Assembly (NCBI RefSeq): GCF_009601765.2
Contig: NZ_CP045700.1
Location: 186,001-250,000, forward strand
DNA length: 64,000 nt
Origin: Vibrio algicola
GTDB taxonomy: Bacteria; Pseudomonadota; Gammaproteobacteria; Enterobacterales; Vibrionaceae
Direction: 5' to 3'
Part shown: positions 3,639 to 46,934 of the stretch, in pieces
How the letters are laid out: each line of letters starts with the position of its first letter
Position numbering within the stretch: the first letter of the stretch is position 1
Notes under the pieces: model-generated
Database searches by the model: none
Told to the model about the DNA's origin: nothing
The model's input: the letters and a program-made list of their open reading frames with translations, nothing else
Position numbers and translations under genes: made by a program

Positions 3639-3680
3639 CGGCTAACGGCTAACGGCTAACGGCTAACGGCTAACGGCTAA
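3639..3680. repeat. Heptanucleotide tandem array, CGGCTAA x6
   Basis: Six perfect consecutive copies of CGGCTAA begin three bases after the stop codon of the TetR gene. A perfect heptamer array can change copy number by slippage. Being just outside the gene, it cannot alter that reading frame but could affect 3' stability or spacing to the next promoter. Confidence 0.95.
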
Positions 3681-3756
3681 CTGGAGCGGTTGTCGTGAAT
3701 CTTTGCAGTAATATTCCTAAACCGCATATTTAATACCCACCAATGTCATTTCAATT

Positions 3757-7532: not shown

Positions 7533-8575
7533 GGGCTTTGTTGAATCGCTCAGATAATGCTCAATTATTCCATTAACACTGAGTTCAGTTATCATAGCTG
7601 GCCTTTCATTCCAGTTAGCTGTTTAACACATGCCTTACAAACACAATGACGCCAAACGCCATCATTTTAAGAAGCATACCTATGCCTTAAATAACTATCG
7701 GGAGTATAACCAGGCTCTCAGACAACGTGGTCGGTTCGATATTTGGATATCTGAAGATATCATCAAACATTGGCAACATGACGACCGCGTTTATGATGGT
7801 ACCGGCTCTTCCGTTAAGTATCCTGACAGCACCATCGAAGCCTGCCACTACATTCGATTGGTATATAAATTTCCTCTACGTCAAGCTCAGGGACTGATTG
7901 AAAACTTACTGATGAAACTCGGCATGGACAACCTTCAATGCCCAGATTATACGCTGTTATCAAAGCGGCTAAAGCAACTCAACCTTACAGCTCCCCGCTT
8001 TAGAAAGCATGAAATGCCAGATGACAAAATGGCAGCGATAGCCATTGATTCAACGGGTCTCAAACGATTTGGGAAGGATGAATGGCATCAAGAAAAACAT
8101 AAGGTTAACGCAAAACGAAGCTGGCGAAAGGCGCACTTTGCGGTTGATGAGGGGCACTTCATTCAAAGCGCAGTCCTCACCGACAAAATGTATGATACCA
8201 ATATGGTGTACCAGACATTAGAAGCCCATTTTCCGAATGCCGAGATTGTTATTCCACCGAAAGACAATACGTTTGCCGATGAGGCTCATCACCCTAAGAG
8301 GATGAGTAACCTGATAGGTTGCTTCGCCCTTGGTATTATAGGTTGGCAGAGCGTGCGGCAATACGGCAAAAGGAATATCTCAGAAACTGCCATGCAACGT
8401 TACAAGAAGATAATCGGCAATACATTACACAGCAGAAAATTTAAAAATCAGTCAAAGGAAATGTTACTCGGTTGTTCTATTTTAAATCGCTTCACTCACC
8501 TCGGTATGCCCAATAGCTACCGAGCTGCCTAACCGTATCAAAAGACCACAAAGTTTTAGTATTGCAACAATGCCC
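7533..8575 (+). mobile_element. IS5-family insertion sequence, internally deleted copy
   Basis: The ends are GGGCTTTGTTGAATCGCT on the left and the complement of GGGCATTGTTGCAATACT on the right, matching the GGCTTTGTTGCA ends of the second copy at 22458-23577. The element is 78 bp shorter than that copy. No clear target duplication flanks it. Confidence 0.85.
7630..8532 (+). pseudogene. IS5-family transposase with a 26-residue internal deletion
   Basis: A 300-residue DDE transposase with IAIDSTGLKRFGKDEW (first catalytic Asp) and QYGKRNISETAMQRYKK (third catalytic Glu region). Compared with the 326-residue relative at 22500-23480, it lacks 26 residues between AVLTDK and MYDTN, in frame. The missing block is the strand before the second catalytic Asp. 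The deletion ends share the GACAAAA microhomology. An Asp is restored at the join, but spacing to the first Asp is wrong, so activity is unlikely. The two proteins otherwise differ at many positions, so they are related elements rather than recent copies. Confidence 0.8.
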
Positions 8576-8706
8576 TCTGAGACCGGCTATTTTGGTTTTC
8601 ATTTTTTGGATAAGATAAGAGTTCGTTCTTTGTAGAAAATAAAGTACAAACAAAGCTGACCTGTTGATTTAAGTGCTCATATTACAAGCAATGCTTGCTA
8701 AAAATG

Positions 8707-8742
8707 ATACTATCTATCTATCTATCTACCTATCTACCTATT
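8707..8742. repeat. Tetranucleotide microsatellite (TATC/TACC) before the OmpA-like gene
   Basis: Four perfect TATC units (8711-8726) are followed by TACC, TATC, TACC and TATT. The array ends 8 bp before the ATG at 8751 and thus lies over its promoter or leader. It also lies inside an upstream in-frame extension starting at a GTG at 8673. Slippage here could vary expression, as with known phase-variable surface genes. Confidence 0.8.
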
Positions 8743-8750
8743 TGGAAATC

Positions 8751-9681
8751 ATGAAAAAAATAATATTATTTACTAGTTTATTCAGTATTCCAGTACTGGC
8801 TGCGACGGAGTCCCCTCAGATTTTTGTTGGTGTAAAGGGTGGGTATCAATGGGCCCTAGACGACAATTACAATCATTCACATCCAGAGGGCACAATTTTA
8901 GGTCTCTATGGCGGGTTACAGTTTACGCCCTCTTGGAGTTGGGATTTAGGCTATCAATATCACGATAAACTAAAGGCAGACGTCACATCAGTTAATGTTA
9001 AAACTTGGTTGATTGAAAGTGCTCTTCGTTACGATTGGTACCTACAAGATAACCTAAGTTTATACGGTCGGCTTGGTGCTGCTTATTGGGACATGGAAAA
9101 AACGCAAATGTCTTCAAATGAGAGCGATGCAACAGGCTTTTCTCCTCTCGGTGAGGTAGGGATTAACTATCTCTTTAATCCTAACGTCCGATTATCAATG
9201 GGCTACCAATACATTGACAGTATTGGTAAGTCAAATACGGGTAAGTATGGTAAGTCAAATACGGGTAAGTATGATAGCCATGGATTGTTGGTCAGTCTAA
9301 CCTATACGTTTGGCAGTACAACTCAACCAGCGTTAGTCGAAACAGCGCCAACGTCTATTATTGAAGATACTCCCGTTAAAGAGACAGCCACTGTAAAAGC
9401 ACCTCCTCAAACACAGGCCTTTTCACCAAAAACTACAGATGGATTGTTTGGTTTTGATTCAGTCGAACCTAGCCAAGAGTTTATTGACCAATTAACTGAG
9501 ATCTCTTCAGTATTAAATTCTTACCCACAAGCTCAGGCTAAAGTTGTTGGACACACCGACGCAACTTGAGTGGAGAGGTGAGGGTGAGTCTCAACCTGTT
9601 GCAGATAACAATACTGCTGAAGGACGAGCTAAAAACCGCCGAGTTGAAATCACCATTCCTAACTTCCAGTTTCAAGAATAG
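8751..9681 (+). pseudogene. OmpA-family outer membrane protein, frameshifted in the C-terminal domain
   Basis: The frame from 8751 starts with a signal peptide (MKKIILFTSLFSIPVLAA) and an eight-strand OmpA-like barrel (FVGVKGGYQWALDD, WDLGYQYHDKL, YGRLGAAYWD), then a linker and the start of an OmpA/MotB peptidoglycan domain (FGFDSVEPS ... VVGHTDAT) before a stop at 9567-9569. In another frame the end of the same domain continues directly: GESQPVADNNTAEGRAKNRR to the stop at 9679-9681. The middle of the domain, with its NxxLSxxRA helix, is missing. The gene therefore has a deletion plus frameshift. A 24-bp unit is duplicated in tandem at 9225-9272 (GKSNTGKY twice). A barrel-only protein may still be made. 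Confidence 0.82.
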
Positions 9682-9692
9682 GTTGTATTACT

Positions 9693-12600
9693 ATGAATAA
9701 ATATTTTAAATTTCTATTTGCAATAGTGATTTTTCCACTATTAATGCTATTAACTGGTTGTAATTCAGAAGGTGCCTTCTCTGGACCAACCGTAAAATTA
9801 GAACGTATAGATATCACCGCTTCACCGATAACAACACGAGGTGTTAGTGAATTAACGCTTGCGGTAGGTAACAAGCAGCCCTTTGAAGCGGTTGGTCATT
9901 ACTCTGACGGCACATCTCAAGCATTTAAGGATTTAAGTGCGCTTGATTGGGATTCTAGTGATTCAGAGGCTGGGCGTTTTGATGCTCCTGGGGTGCTTAC
10001 TGGCATCGAAGTGGGTAGCACGACCCTCACGGCCAGTAAAGATGGTGTTACTAGTAATGAGGTTACTGTCACCGTAACGGATGCGGTCATCACATCGATT
10101 CAAGTGACGCCTTCACCGATCAACGTAGCAAAAGGTCAGACTCAGCAGTTAACTGCAACAGCGACATTCAGTGATGGGACGTCCTCTGACGTGTCTAACT
10201 CAGTGACGTGGACATCTCTCGATACGGCGACCGCTACCGTGTCATCAACTGGGTTATTATCTGCGGTTAAGATGGGTAATACGACCCTCACGGCCACGAA
10301 GGATGGCGTGACCAGTAATACGGAGGATGTGGATGTGTCGGGAGCGGTCATTACGGCCATTCAAGTGACACCTTCGCCTGTGAAAATTGCGAAAGGTCAG
10401 ACTCAGCAGTTAACTGCAACAGCGACATTCAGTGATGGGACGTCCTCTGACGTGTCTAACTCAGTGACGTGGACATCTCTCGATACGGCGACCGCTACCG
10501 TGTCATCAGAGGGTTTATTGTATGCGGTTAAGATGGGTAATACGACCCTCACGGCCACGAAGGATGGCGTGACCAGTAATACGGTGGATGTGGATGTGTC
10601 GGGAGCGGTCATTACGGCCATTCAAGTGACGCCTTCACCGGTCAACGTAGCAAAAGGTCAGACTCAGCAGTTAACTGCAACAGCGACATTCAGTGATGGG
10701 ACGTCCTCTGACGTGTCTAACTCAGTGACGTGGACACCTCTCGATACGGCGACCGCTACCGTGTCATCAGAGGGTTTATTGTATGCGGTTAAGATGGGTA
10801 ATACGACCCTCACGGCCACGAAGGATGGCGTGACCAGTAATACGGAGGATGTGGATGTGTCGGGAGCGGTCATTATGGCCATTCAAGTGACACCTTCGCC
10901 TGTGAAAATTGCGAAAGGTCAGACTCAGCAGTTAACTGCAACAGCGACATTCAGTGATGGGACGTCCTCTGACGTGTCTAACTCAGTGACGTGGACACCT
11001 CTCGATACGGCGACCGCTACCGTGTCATCAGAGGGTTTATTGTATGCGGTTAAGATGGGTAATACGACCCTCACGGCCACGAAGGATGGCGTGACCAGTA
11101 ATACGGTGGATGTGGATGTGTCGGGAGCGGTCATTACGGCCATTCAAGTGACGCCTTCACCGGTCAACGTAGCAAAAGGTCAGACTCAGCAGTTAACTGC
11201 AACAGCGACATTCAGTGATGGGACGTCCTCTGACGTGTCTAACTCAGTGACGTGGACATCTCTCGATACGGCGACCGCTACCGTGTCATCAACTGGGTTA
11301 TTATCTGCGGTTAAGATGGGTAATACGACCCTCACGGCCACGAAGGATGGCGTGACCAGTAATACGGAGGATGTGGATGTGTCGGGAGCGGTCATTACGG
11401 CCATTCAAGTGACACCTTCGCCTGTGAAAATTGCGAAAGGTCAGACTCAGCAGTTAACTGCAACAGCGACATTCAGTGATGGGACGTCCTCTGACGTGTC
11501 TAACTCAGTGACGTGGACACCTCTCGATACGGCGACCGCTACCGTGTCATCAGAGGGTTTATTGTATGCGGTTAAGATGGGTAATACGACCCTCACGGCC
11601 ACGAAGGATGGCGTGACCAGTAATACGGTGGATGTGGATGTGTCGGGAGCGGTCATTACGGCCATTCAAGTGACGCCTTCACCGGTCAACGTAGCAAAAG
11701 GTCAGACTCAGCAGTTAACTGCAACAGCGACATTCAGTGATGGGACGTCCTCTGACGTGTCTAACTCAGTGACGTGGACACCTCTCGATACGGCGACCGC
11801 TACCGTGTCATCAGAGGGTTTATTGTATGCGGTTAAGATGGGTAATACGACCCTCACGGCCACGAAGGATGGCGTGACCAGTAATACGGTGGATGTGGAT
11901 GTGTCGGGAGCGGTCATTACGGCCATTCAAGTGACGCCTTCACCGGTCAACGTAGCAAAAGGTCAGACTCAGCAGTTAACTGCAACAGCGACATTCAGTG
12001 ATGGGACGTCCTCTGACGTGTCTAACTCAGTGACGTGGACATCTCTCGATACGGCGACCGCTACCGTGTCATCAGAGGGTTTATTGTATGCGGTTAAGAT
12101 GGGTAATACGACCCTCACGGCCACGAAGGATGGCGTGACCAGTAATACGGTGGATGTGGATGTGTCGGGAGCGGTCATTACGGCTATTCAAGTGACGCCT
12201 TCACCGGTCAACGTAGCAAAAGGTCAGACTCAGCAGTTAACTGCAACAGCGACATTCAGTGATGGGACGTCCTCTGACGTGTCTAACTCAGTGACGTGGA
12301 CATCTCTCGATACGGCGACCGCTACCGTGTCATCAACTGGGTTATTATCTGCGGTTAATATGGGTAATACGACCCTCACGGCCACGAAGGATGGCGTGAC
12401 CAGTAATACGGAGGATGTGGATGTGTCGGGAGCGGTCATTACGGCCATTCAAGTGACGCCTTCACCGGTCAACGTAGCAAAAGGTCAGACTCAGCAGTTA
12501 ACTGCAACAGCGACATTCAGTGATGGGACGTCCTCTGACGTGTCTAACTCAGTGACGTGGACACCTCTCGATACGGCGACCGCTAGCGTGTCATCAGAGG

Positions 12601-13130
12601 GTTTATTGTATGCGGTTAAGATGGGTAATACGACCCTCACGGCCACGAAGGATGGCGTGACCAGTAATACGGTGGATGTGAATGTATGTGCTGACTTGGC
12701 GGGTGCATGCATTGATACTTTCGATACTGGTACTGGTAAGTTGTTTACCAATTCACCATCAGTGGCTTACCTAGACAGTATTGGCGGAAGTGCTACAAAC
12801 GGTATTTATACTGAAACAGGAGCTTTCGGCCCAAGTGGTGATTTCTACCTATTCAACGTGACTAACGCAAATGCACTATGTACTACCTACAACGCCCTTA
12901 GTCTCGGCGGACGAACTAACTGGCGTTTAGCGACAAGAGACGAGTTAAAAACGGAGCTATACAACGTATCTGGTAATATGTTTACCGCGCGCGGTTGGCC
13001 GGCCTACACCATCTATTGGTCGGCGACTCCTGATGGTTCTAAGCAGTACTACGTGAACCTCAACAATGGCAACGCCTTCAGCCTCAATCCGAGCGGCACG
13101 TACTACGCATCCTGCGTCTCAAATCCTTAA
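9693..13130 (+). CDS. Large surface lipoprotein with eleven Ig-like (Big-2-type) repeats and a Lcl/DUF1566-like C-terminus
   Basis: An 1145-residue predicted lipoprotein. A signal peptide ends in the lipobox LLTGC (Cys at about residue 23). One divergent Ig-like unit (about residues 34-130) is followed by ten near-identical 87-residue units beginning VITAIQVTPSPVNVAKGQTQ and ending TLTATKDGVTSN, typical of bacterial Ig-like group 2 domains. The last 140 residues resemble DUF1566/Lcl C-terminal domains: TNWRLATRDELKTELYN, IYWSATPDGSKQYYVNLNNG and a terminal YYASCVSNP. Such proteins act as stalks carrying a binding tip. It sits 11 bp after the broken OmpA-like gene and ends at a terminator. Binding partner unknown. 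Confidence 0.85.
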   Translation: MNKYFKFLFAIVIFPLLMLLTGCNSEGAFSGPTVKLERIDITASPITTRGVSELTLAVGNKQPFEAVGHYSDGTSQAFKDLSALDWDSSDSEAGRFDAPGVLTGIEVGSTTLTASKDGVTSNEVTVTVTDAVITSIQVTPSPINVAKGQTQQLTATATFSDGTSSDVSNSVTWTSLDTATATVSSTGLLSAVKMGNTTLTATKDGVTSNTEDVDVSGAVITAIQVTPSPVKIAKGQTQQLTATATFSDGTSSDVSNSVTWTSLDTATATVSSEGLLYAVKMGNTTLTATKDGVTSNTVDVDVSGAVITAIQVTPSPVNVAKGQTQQLTATATFSDGTSSDVSNSVTWTPLDTATATVSSEGLLYAVKMGNTTLTATKDGVTSNTEDVDVSGAVIMAIQVTPSPVKIAKGQTQQLTATATFSDGTSSDVSNSVTWTPLDTATATVSSEGLLYAVKMGNTTLTATKDGVTSNTVDVDVSGAVITAIQVTPSPVNVAKGQTQQLTATATFSDGTSSDVSNSVTWTSLDTATATVSSTGLLSAVKMGNTTLTATKDGVTSNTEDVDVSGAVITAIQVTPSPVKIAKGQTQQLTATATFSDGTSSDVSNSVTWTPLDTATATVSSEGLLYAVKMGNTTLTATKDGVTSNTVDVDVSGAVITAIQVTPSPVNVAKGQTQQLTATATFSDGTSSDVSNSVTWTPLDTATATVSSEGLLYAVKMGNTTLTATKDGVTSNTVDVDVSGAVITAIQVTPSPVNVAKGQTQQLTATATFSDGTSSDVSNSVTWTSLDTATATVSSEGLLYAVKMGNTTLTATKDGVTSNTVDVDVSGAVITAIQVTPSPVNVAKGQTQQLTATATFSDGTSSDVSNSVTWTSLDTATATVSSTGLLSAVNMGNTTLTATKDGVTSNTEDVDVSGAVITAIQVTPSPVNVAKGQTQQLTATATFSDGTSSDVSNSVTWTPLDTATASVSSEGLLYAVKMGNTTLTATKDGVTSNTVDVNVCADLAGACIDTFDTGTGKLFTNSPSVAYLDSIGGSATNGIYTETGAFGPSGDFYLFNVTNANALCTTYNALSLGGRTNWRLATRDELKTELYNVSGNMFTARGWPAYTIYWSATPDGSKQYYVNLNNGNAFSLNPSGTYYASCVSNP
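10086..12695. repeat. Ten tandem 261-bp repeats within the Ig-like lipoprotein gene
   Basis: Ten units of exactly 261 bp (87 codons) run without spacers. Units differ at a handful of linked sites: INV/KIA/NVA near the start, TSLDT versus TPLDT, STGLLSAV versus SEGLLYAV, and NTEDV versus NTVDV. These variants are reassorted between units, which points to unequal crossing-over and gene conversion. Short ORFs seen on the opposite strand in each unit are mirror artefacts. Confidence 0.97.
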
Positions 13131-13179
13131 CGTTGAGCGTTTACAGTTTAACGTTTTAATTTTCAATTTTAGTTTTTGA

Positions 13180-13207
13180 AGTGCCAGAGTTGCATCTGGC
13201 ACTTTTT
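13180..13207 (+). terminator. Intrinsic terminator after the Ig-like lipoprotein gene
   Basis: AGTGCCAGA (13180-13188) and TCTGGCACT (13195-13203) form a perfect 9-bp stem with a 6-base loop, followed by TTTT. Confidence 0.88.
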
Positions 13208-13223
13208 AAAAGGGGGAAGATAA

Positions 13224-13430
13224 GTGAATATTGAAACTAAATTAGCATTGGTTGAAAGCAGTCAACGTATTGTTGGCATAAAAGAGGGGATGTTTGTACG
13301 TTTCTATGAGCAATCACTCTTTGGTTGGCAGCAGTGGGTATCTAAACAGGACCAATTACAGACATTGAAGGTGTTAAGGAAAAAGGTTAAGAAATTGAAT
13401 GGAAGAGAGGTGTTGTATGGTGGACCCTAG
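13224..13430 (+). pseudogene. Truncated ORF of unknown function
   Basis: A 68-residue ORF starts at GTG with a strong GGGGGAAG ribosome site. The product (MNIETKLALVESSQRIVGIK ... ending REVLYGGP) is charged and has no domain I recognise. It stops where the sequence runs into a 24-bp motif shared with another site (24565-24588), 39 bp before an IS3-family element. The gene therefore looks cut off at its 3' end by a rearrangement rather than naturally short. An intact small protein is the alternative. Confidence 0.5.
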
Positions 13431-13449
13431 ATTCTCAGAATAACCGACA
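13426..13449 (+). repeat. 24-bp motif, copy 1 (inverted relative to 24565-24588)
   Basis: This 24-base sequence, starting CCTAGATTCTCAG, recurs exactly on the opposite strand at 24565-24588. Its centre is the near palindrome ATTCTnAGAAT. Both copies lie at the broken end of an ORF, as expected of a transposon end or recombination site. Confidence 0.8.
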
Positions 13450-13532
13450 CACTTGGTATAGACACAAGTATTCTGGTCTAATCGATCTGGACACCTTGAT
13501 TGTGGATAATACGATAATCAATCGAGGTGAAT

Positions 13533-13820
13533 ATGAATACAAAACGTCAATATCGAACTTATACGAAAGAATTTAAAGAAGAGGCAATCGGCCTTATTAC
13601 CGAACAAGGGTATTCTGTCGCCCAAGCTGCTGATGCGTTGGGAGTATCACAAAACCTGCTTTACACTTGGAAGCAGAAGGCTGACGAACTCAATAATTCA
13701 TCTGTCAACGCAGATGAAAAAACGGAATTAATGGCTCTGAGAAAGGAAGTAAAGCAGCTTAGAATGGAGAAAGAGATCCTAAAAAAAGCCAGCGCCTTCT
13801 TTGCGAAAGAAATGAAGTAA
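13533..13820 (+). CDS. IS3-family transposase OrfA
   Basis: A DNA-binding protein of about 95 residues with the helix-turn-helix KEFKEEAIGLITEQGYSVAQ...ALGVSQNLLYTWK (quoted in parts) and a C-terminal leucine-rich coiled coil (ALRKEVKQLRMEKEILKKA). The ATG at 13533 is chosen because GAGGTG lies just upstream. An A7 tract at 13781-13787 near the end would allow the -1 frameshift that makes the OrfAB transposase in this family. Confidence 0.9.
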   Translation: MNTKRQYRTYTKEFKEEAIGLITEQGYSVAQAADALGVSQNLLYTWKQKADELNNSSVNADEKTELMALRKEVKQLRMEKEILKKASAFFAKEMK

Positions 13821-14688
13821 AGTTTCAATTTATTCGAGAGCATCGCTCTCGATTTCCAATAAAAATGCTTTGTAACGCTCTAAAAGTAAGCCGCAGTGCA
13901 TTTTATGATTGGTTAGCACGACCTGCTCAGATCATTACTGAGCAAGAGCTTAATTTATACAGAACTGCCAAGCGCTTATTCAAGCGCAGTCGTGGAAGTT
14001 TAGGCTCTCGTCAATTAGCTAAGAAACTACGTGAAGAAGGCTTCACTATCGGGCGTTATCGTACTCGCACCATCATGCGTAAGTTAGGTCTTGTTGTGCG
14101 TCAGCGTCGAGCTTATAAAATCACCACCAAGCGGAAACATAGTGATAGCGTTGCAGATAATATATTAAAACAACAATTTAATCCTACAGTGCCCAATCGT
14201 ATTTGGGCCGGAGATGTTACTTATCTGAGAACCAATCAAGCTTGGATGTATCTGGCTGTAGTCATGGATTTACATTCACGCGGATCATTGGTTGGGCATT
14301 ATCAGATCGCATGACGGTAGGTCTCGTTGAACGTGCATTACAAATGGCAATTACACTTCGTAAGCCTCAAAGAGGCTTACTTTTCCATAGTGATAGAGGC
14401 TCACAGTACACCAGCAGTTCATTTCAGCACCTGTTAACGAGAAATGGCATCACATCATCAATGAGCAGCGTTGGAGCTTGTTTAGACAATGCAGTCGTCG
14501 AACGGTTCTTCGGTAGCTTGAAAAATGAATGGCTACTCAATGTGGTTTATTTAACGCGTGATGCAATGAAAGAAGGTGTTGAAGAATATATCCGGTATTA
14601 CAACCATGAAAGGTTGCATACTACGCTTGGTGATTTAACGCCAATCGACTATGAAAAATTACAAAGTCAGGTGTCCTATTGGGCTTGA
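13787..14688 (+). pseudogene. IS3-family transposase OrfB, broken by a one-base deletion
   Basis: The rve-type integrase domain has the DDE residues: Asp in AGDVTYLRTN, Asp in FHSDRGSQYTS and Glu in VVERFFGSLKNEW. The frame reads from the A7 slippery tract to about 14280, where HSRR-IIGWALSDR is interrupted. One C is missing near 14281, so the first part ends at 14314 and the rest continues in another frame to 14688. The element cannot make full-length transposase on its own. An HTH_21-type segment (KRLFKRSRGSLGSRQLAKKL) precedes the catalytic core. Confidence 0.88.
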
Positions 14689-14814
14689 CCAGAATATTTT
14701 TAAAATGATATTAAAATAAAGCAAATAATAATTGTGAATGCATCATCCAGTATTTATTTTTTATGATGAATGGGTGGTTGATATTAACTTAAAACAATAT
14801 GTTTCTTTAAATGT

Positions 14815-24559: not shown

Positions 24560-24850
24560 TTGGTTGTCGGTTATTCTGAGAATCTAGGTATTGATATTGA
24601 CTCAAACGGGAATGCTGCCTTGTCTAAAAATAAGGTTGCTCATATTTATATAAAAATTGATCTAAATAGTGATAATGCAAATACCCGTCATGAAAAAACG
24701 GCACAATTTTTAGCAACACGTGTTGGTAATGAGATTCAGATAGTGCCATATATCTATGCAATTGCCATTACTGATGACATTACTACATTGTGGTCATCGG
24801 GTGATATTAAAAAGATGGATGATGAGTATATTAAAACTTATCCATTATAA
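24560..24850 (+). pseudogene. Orphan C-terminal gene fragment
   Basis: An open frame of up to 96 residues (IDIDSNGNAALSKNKVAHIY ... DDEYIKTYPL) with protein-like composition but no start codon with a ribosome site. It enters from the shared 24-bp motif at 24565-24588 and ends before a good terminator. It is best read as the 3' part of a gene whose 5' half was lost in a rearrangement. Function unknown. Confidence 0.5.
24565..24588 (-). repeat. 24-bp motif, copy 2
   Basis: Exact reverse complement of 13426-13449. Outside the 24 bases the two sites share only scattered bases (for example CCAAG on one side). Confidence 0.8.
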
Positions 24851-46821: not shown

Positions 46822-46934
46822 GACCCGAGACCCGAGACCCGAGACCCGAGACCCGAGACCCGAGACCCGAGACCCGAGACCCGAGACCCGAGACCCGAGA
46901 CCCGAGACCCGAGACCCGAGACCCGAGACCCGAG
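46822..46934. repeat. Heptanucleotide tandem array, GACCCGA x16
   Basis: About 16 perfect copies of the 7-base unit GACCCGA fill the gap between nirC and cobA, ending 13 bp after the nirC stop codon on the minus strand. The transcript would read CTCGGGT repeats. An ORF across the array (DPRPET repeats) is a low-complexity artefact. Confidence 0.97.

What the first reader, a model, noticed from the sequence alone, without database searches (positions are those of the whole stretch)
9693..13130. Surface lipoprotein with ten near-identical 261-bp Ig-like repeats and a DUF1566-like tip
The sequence shows ten spacer-free 87-codon units with nearly identical DNA and a few linked variant sites shuffled between units. 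This pattern points to recent expansion with gene conversion. A lipobox at the N-terminus and a different C-terminal domain suggest an extendable stalk with a binding tip. Copy number probably varies between strains.
Basis: partly seen in the sequence, partly recalled or inferred. Interest (0 to 1): 0.7.

Follow-up and report, generated by a model that had tools for sequence, protein, structure and literature searches.

The report
Stranded target of hypermutation cassette
This Vibrio surface protein, a stalk of near-identical immunoglobulin-like repeats ending in a lectin-like tip, is a leftover of a mobile cassette that in relatives appears to rewrite the tip at chosen letters by error-prone reverse transcription, while the stalk also differs in length between copies.

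Summary
In detail: 9693-13130 is one intact 1145-aa lipoprotein ORF with ten 261-bp units (91.6-99.6% identical) and a different C-terminal domain. The reading (extendable stalk plus tip) holds in part but misses the main point. The tip has the C-type lectin fold, and its last 136 bp (12986-13121) are the variable region (VR) of a diversity-generating retroelement (DGR). In 12 plasmid copies from Vibrio and Shewanella a template repeat lies about 0.8 kb downstream, with a reverse transcriptase and an Avd-like gene; 144 of 149 mismatches in the 8 distinct VRs fall at template adenines. Three plasmids of one V. vulnificus strain match over the first 290 bp of the tip but differ at 20-22 of 136 VR positions. 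In V. harveyi the cassette lies inside a Tn3-family transposon. Stalk unit number differs between close copies (10/12, 7/6, 7/4, 7/12). The window's copy is stranded: homology stops at 13423, ompA is frameshifted, and no template or DGR reverse transcriptase was found in its genome. The DGR lineage was described in 2012 (S. baltica OS155); repeat stalk, Tn3 carriage and orphan were not found in the papers searched.

The parts
9693..13130 (+). DGR target gene: lipoprotein with Ig-like (Big_2) stalk and C-type-lectin-fold tip, 1145 aa, ORF intact
9693..9761 (+). lipoprotein signal peptide ending in lipobox LTGC (Cys23)
   Evidence: read directly; export not tested
9822..10082 (+). diverged Ig-like unit 0
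   Evidence: Big_2, 23.2 bits against 22.8
10083..12692 (+). ten near-identical 261-bp (87-codon) Ig-like units
12696..13127 (+). tip: Lcl_C / InvE_AD domain, C-type lectin fold
12986..13121 (+). variable region (VR) of the DGR; differs from the commonest plasmid TR at 12 of 40 A and 4 of 96 other positions
8751..9569 (+). ompA partner, from MKK start to a premature stop: barrel domain present, C-terminal OmpA domain broken
9553..9681 (+). left-over end of the OmpA C-terminal domain in another frame
8710..8741 (+). CTAT tetranucleotide tract just before the ompA MKK start
13224..13424 (+). first 67 codons of the cassette's 163-aa accessory ORF (99% identical to that of Vibrio sp. YMD68); the rest is missing
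13469..14696 (+). insertion sequence beyond the cassette break (HTH_Tnp_1 and rve domains; IS3 family by inference), with further copies in the genome
7630..8532 (+). IS5-family transposase on the other side of the remnant (cassette homology starts at 8575)

Best explanation
The gene encodes a lipoprotein adhesin: a stalk of Ig-like repeats that holds out a C-type-lectin-fold tip. The last 45 residues of the tip are the variable region of an 'inverted' diversity-generating retroelement. In complete relatives the order is ompA, target, 163-aa ORF, template repeat (TR), reverse transcriptase (RT, opposite strand) and Avd-like gene. The RT would copy TR RNA with errors at adenines, and the cDNA would overwrite the VR, so the binding face changes while the scaffold stays. 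Independently, recombination between identical 261-bp units lengthens or shortens the stalk. In the window the cassette was cut after codon 67 of the accessory ORF and lost its TR, RT and Avd, and its ompA is frameshifted. The tip is therefore frozen at its last variant. Shown by sequence: VR/TR pairs with adenine-specific mismatches in relatives, VR divergence between otherwise identical copies, whole-unit stalk differences, predicted fold of the tip, and that no TR or DGR RT was found in this genome. Inferred: the retrohoming step itself, the recombination step, surface display, ligand binding, and that the window's protein is still made.
Against: Four of the window's 16 VR mismatches are not at adenines (plasmid copies have 0-2 against their own TR). 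The TR used is a relative's, because the window has none. The Avd match is below the curated cut-offs (27.5 against 80, NCBIfam; 23.9 against 40, Pfam). Stalk counts rest on public assemblies. The three V. harveyi NH-LM1 plasmids share one VR although one stalk differs, and in the S. baltica and V. parahaemolyticus pairs too the VR is the same. Surface display was not tested, and S. baltica has Asp after the lipobox Cys, which in E. coli signals inner-membrane retention (recalled).
Confidence: 0.9

Rival explanations
1. An ordinary repeat-stalk adhesin with an Lcl/InvE-type tip that drifted by point mutation and was never a DGR target.
For: Many relatives in the genus have no such RT: 61 of 148 genomes match the protein at E<=0.001, but 5 of 148 hold the RT at E<=1e-20. 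Several distant tips show no adenine bias.
Against: The window VR keeps the TR frame and shows adenine-biased change. The cassette homology includes the DGR-linked 163-aa ORF at 99% identity over 67 aa.
Confidence: 0.05
2. The whole locus is a decaying relic between insertion sequences and the protein has no present function.
For: ompA is frameshifted, the accessory ORF is cut, insertion sequences lie on both sides, and TR, RT and Avd were not found next to it.
Against: The 1145-aa ORF is intact with a lipobox, and its units are still homogenised (95.9% within against 86.3-92.2% to four other arrays in register). Some other targets without RT are also long open frames behind an ompA (L051, L052, L053).
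Confidence: 0.3
3. The VR is still rewritten in trans by another reverse transcriptase in the cell.
For: DGR action at a distance is thinkable; PMC3521204 notes a DGR with VRs farther away and on the opposite strand (section 15).
Against: No second copy of TR or VR found; the one RT found is a retron RT.
Confidence: 0.03
4. A split invasin: the OmpA-family barrel exports or anchors the lipoprotein stalk, doing in two chains what intimin/invasin do in one.
For: In 14 of 16 distinct loci with an RT of at least 90% identity an OmpA gene lies directly upstream; the other 2 (L102, L107) are cut by a contig end. Annotated gaps are -4 to +11 bp in 10 of the 12 RT-bearing plasmid loci; in OS155 the annotated gap is 146 bp, though an earlier in-frame start exists, and in L085 the target is not annotated. 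Tip and last Ig align to InvE, invasin and intimin.
Against: Association only; no interaction predicted or tested. In the window ompA is broken although the target is intact, and many more distant targets have no OmpA hit upstream.
Confidence: 0.3

Closest known systems
'Inverted' DGRs of S. baltica OS155 pSbal02, Vibrio sp. RC586 and Photobacterium angustum S14 (Schillinger et al. 2012, PMC3521204)
   Same: Same lineage: OS155 pSbal02 is L074 here. RT on the opposite strand, TR/VR 130-139 nt, 18-21 A substitutions in the paper (section 15 read).
   Different: The paper's main text has 0 hits for OmpA and Ig-like. The window's copy has lost TR and RT.
DGR targets with DUF1566 or Big_2 domains in human metagenomes (PMC4159848; passages seen)
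   Same: DGR variable proteins with a DUF1566 domain, and others with Big_2 domains.
   Different: Shown there as separate proteins in the passages seen; 0 hits for Vibrio or Shewanella; near-identical repeat stalk, OmpA partner and orphan state not seen.
Adhesin as DGR target (PMC6642488; passages seen)
   Same: A LapA-like giant adhesin as DGR target; also a V. cholerae DGR with non-A substitutions.
   Different: 0 hits for Shewanella or Ig-like.
Legionella LdtA, DGR-diversified surface lipoprotein (Arambula et al. 2013; title seen only in reference lists)
   Same: Surface lipoprotein varied by a DGR; C-type-lectin tip (recalled).
   Different: Here there is a long stalk of near-identical Ig repeats and an OmpA partner gene.
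Periscope Proteins (PMC8201768; passages seen)
   Same: Tandem near-identical folded domains whose number varies and sets how far a binding domain projects.
   Different: Gram-negative lipoprotein with the tip at the C terminus, and the tip itself is a DGR variable region. No held paper has both 'diversity-generating retroelement' and 'periscope'.
Legionella Lcl C-terminal domain (PDB 8q4e, PMC11162425; passages seen)
   Different: Collagen-like trimeric stalk, binds glycosaminoglycans; 0 hits for 'diversity-generating'.
Yersinia InvE, invasin, intimin
   Different: Those carry their own barrel in one chain (recalled); here the barrel is a separate gene.
Leptospira LigA/LigB
   Different: No C-type-lectin DGR tip (recalled).

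Membership tests
Diversity-generating retroelement (relatives' cassettes) | TR/VR pair with mismatches confined to TR adenines | tested here: met
   144 of 149 mismatches in 8 distinct VRs (12 copies)
Diversity-generating retroelement (relatives' cassettes) | RT of DGR type (SQ dipeptide) | tested here: met
   SQ at 223, YMDD at 250 in the YMD68 RT; one RT inspected by motif, no tree built
Diversity-generating retroelement (relatives' cassettes) | Avd-type accessory protein | tested here: inconclusive
   NF033474 27.5 bits (cut-off 80), PF22296 23.9 (cut-off 40)
Diversity-generating retroelement (relatives' cassettes) | VR in a C-type lectin fold | tested here: met
   window tip model
Complete DGR in the window | RT and TR present | tested here: not met
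   so it is filed as an orphan DGR target, not a DGR
Periscope protein | Tandem folded domains of very high identity | tested here: met
Periscope protein | Domain number varies between strains | tested here: met
   in relatives, four pairs; not tested in the window's own species
Periscope protein | Length variation changes projection of a ligand domain | not testable with these tools
   needs microscopy or biophysics
Lcl_C (PF07603) | Score above gathering cut-off | tested here: met
   43.3 against 34.9 bits for the tip alone; 37.5 for the whole protein
Tn3-family unit transposon (relatives) | Terminal inverted repeats, Tn3 transposase, resolvase, 5-bp target duplication | tested here: met
   V. 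harveyi pvh4: inverted repeats of about 160 bp, transposase (annotated in two pieces) and resolvase, ATGAT on both sides; pvh6 lacks the 5-bp repeat. Left ends of the other copies were not read
Tn3-family unit transposon (window) | Transposon ends or transposase present | tested here: not met
   of the pvh4 element only the part matching window 8575-13423 is found in the 64-kb window
Invasin/intimin inverse autotransporter | Barrel and Ig-lectin passenger in one polypeptide | tested here: not met
   separate ompA gene; the target has no barrel family among its Pfam hits

The most novel reading that the evidence does not exclude
A mobile, self-varying adhesin: a Tn3-family transposon spreads one module whose tip sequence is changed by a DGR and whose stalk length is changed by recombination between identical repeats. 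A variable CTAT tract before ompA might switch expression, and the OmpA barrel might serve as export or anchor partner. Several copies in one cell then carry different tips and lengths, and orphans such as the window's keep a frozen variant after the cassette decays.
Probability: 0.35. Interest if true: 0.8.

Novelty: new variant of a known kind. Interest (0 to 1): 0.6.

Why it matters
DGR targets in bacteria are known mostly from bioinformatics, with little direct evidence of activity outside phages and Legionella (recalled). Here, copies with identical scaffolds and different variable regions sit on three plasmids of one strain, and two of these also differ in stalk length, so the rates of both processes could be measured in a culture. 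It also shows that an adhesin annotated only as 'Ig-like domain-containing protein' can be a stranded DGR target, recognisable by adenine-patterned change in the tip after the reverse transcriptase is gone.

Tried and rejected
(a) Phage origin: the tip matched none of 50,697 phage records (tblastn). (b) The PDB sequence search with the tip gave 7 hits, all to designed repeat 'Cake' proteins with no stretch passing on its own, discarded. (c) FliC, HL_N-beta, DUF6927, PilP and similar Pfam/NCBIfam hits to the array had no single stretch passing and were treated as repeat artefacts. (d) I first took the genome's one RT, retron-like, as a reason to drop the DGR idea (note); the DGR became visible only through plasmid neighbours. 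(e) No TR was found in the 7 kb downstream of the target in L080 and L081. (f) The lower change at VR non-A sites compared with non-A sites in the rest of the tip (4/96 against 21/206) is not significant (p=0.11). (g) In one search the V. parahaemolyticus L076 array was one codon out of register, so its between-array values (about 28%) are meaningless and not used. (h) The promoter scan before ompA in L078 found 6 sites against 3.4 (sd 1.8) in shuffles; not used. (i) One search scored at most 4 candidates and at most 11 per genome, so their counts may be low. (j) Wu et al. 2018 is not held. Papers: section 15 and passages of PMC3521204; passages of PMC8144416, PMC8201768, PMC8987985, PMC11162425, PMC6642488, PMC4159848, PMC8934634; of all others only listings. 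Searches were made after the report was drafted; because DGR targets with Big_2 and with DUF1566 are already in print I lowered interest from 0.62 to 0.60.
Full report
What is in the window. The gene at 9693-13130 is one open frame of 1145 aa with a lipobox (LTGC, Cys23), a diverged Ig unit, ten 261-bp units that are 91.6-99.6% identical, and a 144-aa tip. Nine pairs of informative sites within the units show all four combinations, eight of them one linked block against a single site. The units resemble one another (mean 95.9%) more than they do four other arrays compared in register (86.3-92.2%). Pfam finds Big_2 in the stalk, with Lcl_C (43.3 against 34.9 bits) and InvE_AD (35.5 against 32) in the tip taken alone.

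Relatives. The protein has matches in 61 of 148 genomes of the same genus, the window's own included, at E<=0.001. One of them, G036, has a contig of the same length as the plasmid of Vibrio sp. YMD68 and an identical RT at the same place, so the genus is taken to be Vibrio. The tip occurs in 56 of 72,556 plasmid records: 53 Vibrio, 2 Shewanella, 1 Aeromonas. I read one stretch round the tip in 17 of these 56 records.

The retroelement. In 12 of the 17 plasmid loci the order is OmpA, target, 163-aa ORF, template repeat, RNA-directed DNA polymerase on the other strand, and an Avd-like ORF (cut by the record's end in L082; target present but not annotated in L085). A 136-bp repeat of the end of the target lies about 0.8 kb downstream of it. 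The 12 copies hold 8 distinct VRs. Relative to their own templates these differ at 149 positions, of which 144 are template adenines and 5 are not. The template itself is nearly constant: 9 of 12 copies are identical and the others differ from it at 2 or 3 bases. The other 5 loci of the 17 (L080, L081, L087, L088, L089) show no RT or template in the stretch read. By RT protein, 19 of 72,556 plasmid records match at 1e-60, 16 of them at 90% identity or more.

Evidence of activity. V. vulnificus GCU-01 carries the cassette on three plasmids with the same OmpA and RT accessions; a second RT and tip place on one of them was not read. The first 290 bp of the tip are identical in all three pairs, whereas the 136-bp VR differs at 20, 22 and 22 positions. 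V. harveyi pvh4 and GCU-01-2 show 0 of 290 against 23 of 136. Counter-cases: the three V. harveyi NH-LM1 plasmids share one VR, and so do the two S. baltica copies and the two V. parahaemolyticus copies. This is strong sequence evidence for retrohoming; the reaction itself was not observed.

Stalk length. Near-identical units after unit 0: S. baltica OS117 10 and OS155 12 (same OmpA accession, same VR); V. parahaemolyticus XMO116 7 and GL-601 6 (same OmpA accession, same VR); V. harveyi pvh4 and pvh5 7, pvh6 4 (same VR; pvh4 and pvh6 aligned at 100% over the rest of the element); V. vulnificus GCU-01-2 7 and GCU-01-1 12 (different VR). YMD68 has 13, V. mediterranei 11, the window 10. Stalk and tip therefore change independently. 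These counts rest on public assemblies.

Carriage. In V. harveyi pvh4 the cassette lies inside an element bounded by inverted repeats of about 160 bp (93.8% identical), with a Tn3-family transposase (annotated in two pieces) and a resolvase. The block shared with pvh6 ends within 2 bp of these repeats. A 5-bp repeat (ATGAT) flanks the pvh4 copy but not the pvh6 copy. The same right end is followed by a different flank in each of nine copies (L075, L076, L077, L079, L083, L084, L085, L102 and pvh4), so it seems to have moved repeatedly. In L073, L074, L086, L104 and L107 that end was not found with the pattern used.

The window's copy. DNA homology to the cassettes runs to 13423 in all six loci compared and starts at 8575 in four of them (at about 84-93% identity for the five Vibrio plasmids, about 69-71% for S. 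baltica). Beyond it lie 45 bp of other sequence and an insertion sequence (13469-14696) with further copies in the genome. On the left is an IS5 transposase. The accessory ORF keeps 67 of 163 codons. OmpA has its barrel but a broken C-terminal domain in two frames. The tip's DNA occurs once in the genome. The one RT found scores as a retron St85 RT (317.6 against 235 bits), and the DGR RT has no match at 1e-20. The VR still bears the mark of past diversification: 12 of 40 adenine positions differ from the plasmid template against 4 of 96 others (p=8e-5), and 12 of its 16 differences fall at positions that vary among plasmid VRs (p=6e-5). The four non-adenine changes are more than the 0-2 seen in complete copies, which fits a period of ordinary mutation since the last rewrite (inference).

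Orphans elsewhere. The RT was found in 5 of 148 same-genus genomes (one of them weakly), so most of the 61 genomes with a match lack it at that threshold. Two orphans keep remnants of the accessory ORF (L051, L052). Adenine bias fades with distance from the template, so I do not claim that every Lcl-tipped adhesin was a DGR target.

Comparison with what is known. The DGR lineage is known: PMC3521204 describes S. baltica OS155, Vibrio sp. RC586 and P. angustum S14 as 'inverted' DGRs, and mentions plasmid and Tn7-type association. DGR targets with DUF1566 and with Big_2 domains have been reported from human metagenomes (PMC4159848, passages), and an adhesin target elsewhere (PMC6642488, passages). 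Searches for DGR with Vibrio and plasmid, Ig-like and lipoprotein, V. parahaemolyticus, Tn3, OmpA, periscope, S. baltica, and tandem repeat and adhesin listed no paper whose title or shown start of abstract describes this combination. Most of the listed papers were not opened, 10 papers were not listed, and subscription journals are mostly not held.

Verdict. The window holds an orphaned DGR target gene with a repeat-built stalk. This is a new variant of a known kind, and a good entry point to a transposon-borne system in which tip sequence and stalk length vary separately.

Noticed in passing
window 8710-8741; L075, L076, L077, L078, L100, L103 upstream of ompA: A CTAT (or CTATTTAT) tract precedes the ompA MKK start. 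From an upstream ATG to MKK the length is 87 nt in L075, 51 in L076, 75 in L077, 39 in the V. harveyi and V. vulnificus copies (all multiples of 3), 67 in L100, and 47 in the window and in L103; L101 has no such ATG. Possible phase-variation switch; the true start codon is unknown.
   Followed up: partly
L075:9527-10018 and homologues; window 13224-13424: A 163-aa ORF without Pfam or NCBIfam match lies between target and TR in the 12 RT-bearing plasmid loci read, and a distant form (47% over 100 residues) in the V. splendidus DGR L118. Possibly an undescribed DGR accessory gene.
   Followed up: partly
proteins P0122, P0123, P0125, P0131, P0147: The same tip occurs with PF02369 or PF17963/PF17892 in place of PF02368 (other Ig- or cadherin-like stalk domains, names recalled), which suggests tip swapping between stalks.
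   Followed up: no
window 46822-46934 and 3639-3681: Perfect 7-bp tandem repeats: GACCCGA x16.1 and CGGCTAA x6.1. Nature unknown.
   Followed up: no
L002:1402-2325 (G000:C1): A retron St85-family reverse transcriptase; ORFs upstream look transposase-like by eye.
   Followed up: partly
window 13426-13449 and 24565-24588: A 24-bp match in inverted orientation, at the break point of the cassette and about 11 kb away.
   Followed up: no
L085 (V. vulnificus pVv_GCU-01-3): The target gene is not annotated there although tip and VR are present; the alignment to pvh4 breaks inside the array. Not examined further.
   Followed up: no
L053 (V. rhodolitus, same place as L109): Two target-like genes with one Ig unit each in a row behind one ompA.
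   Followed up: no
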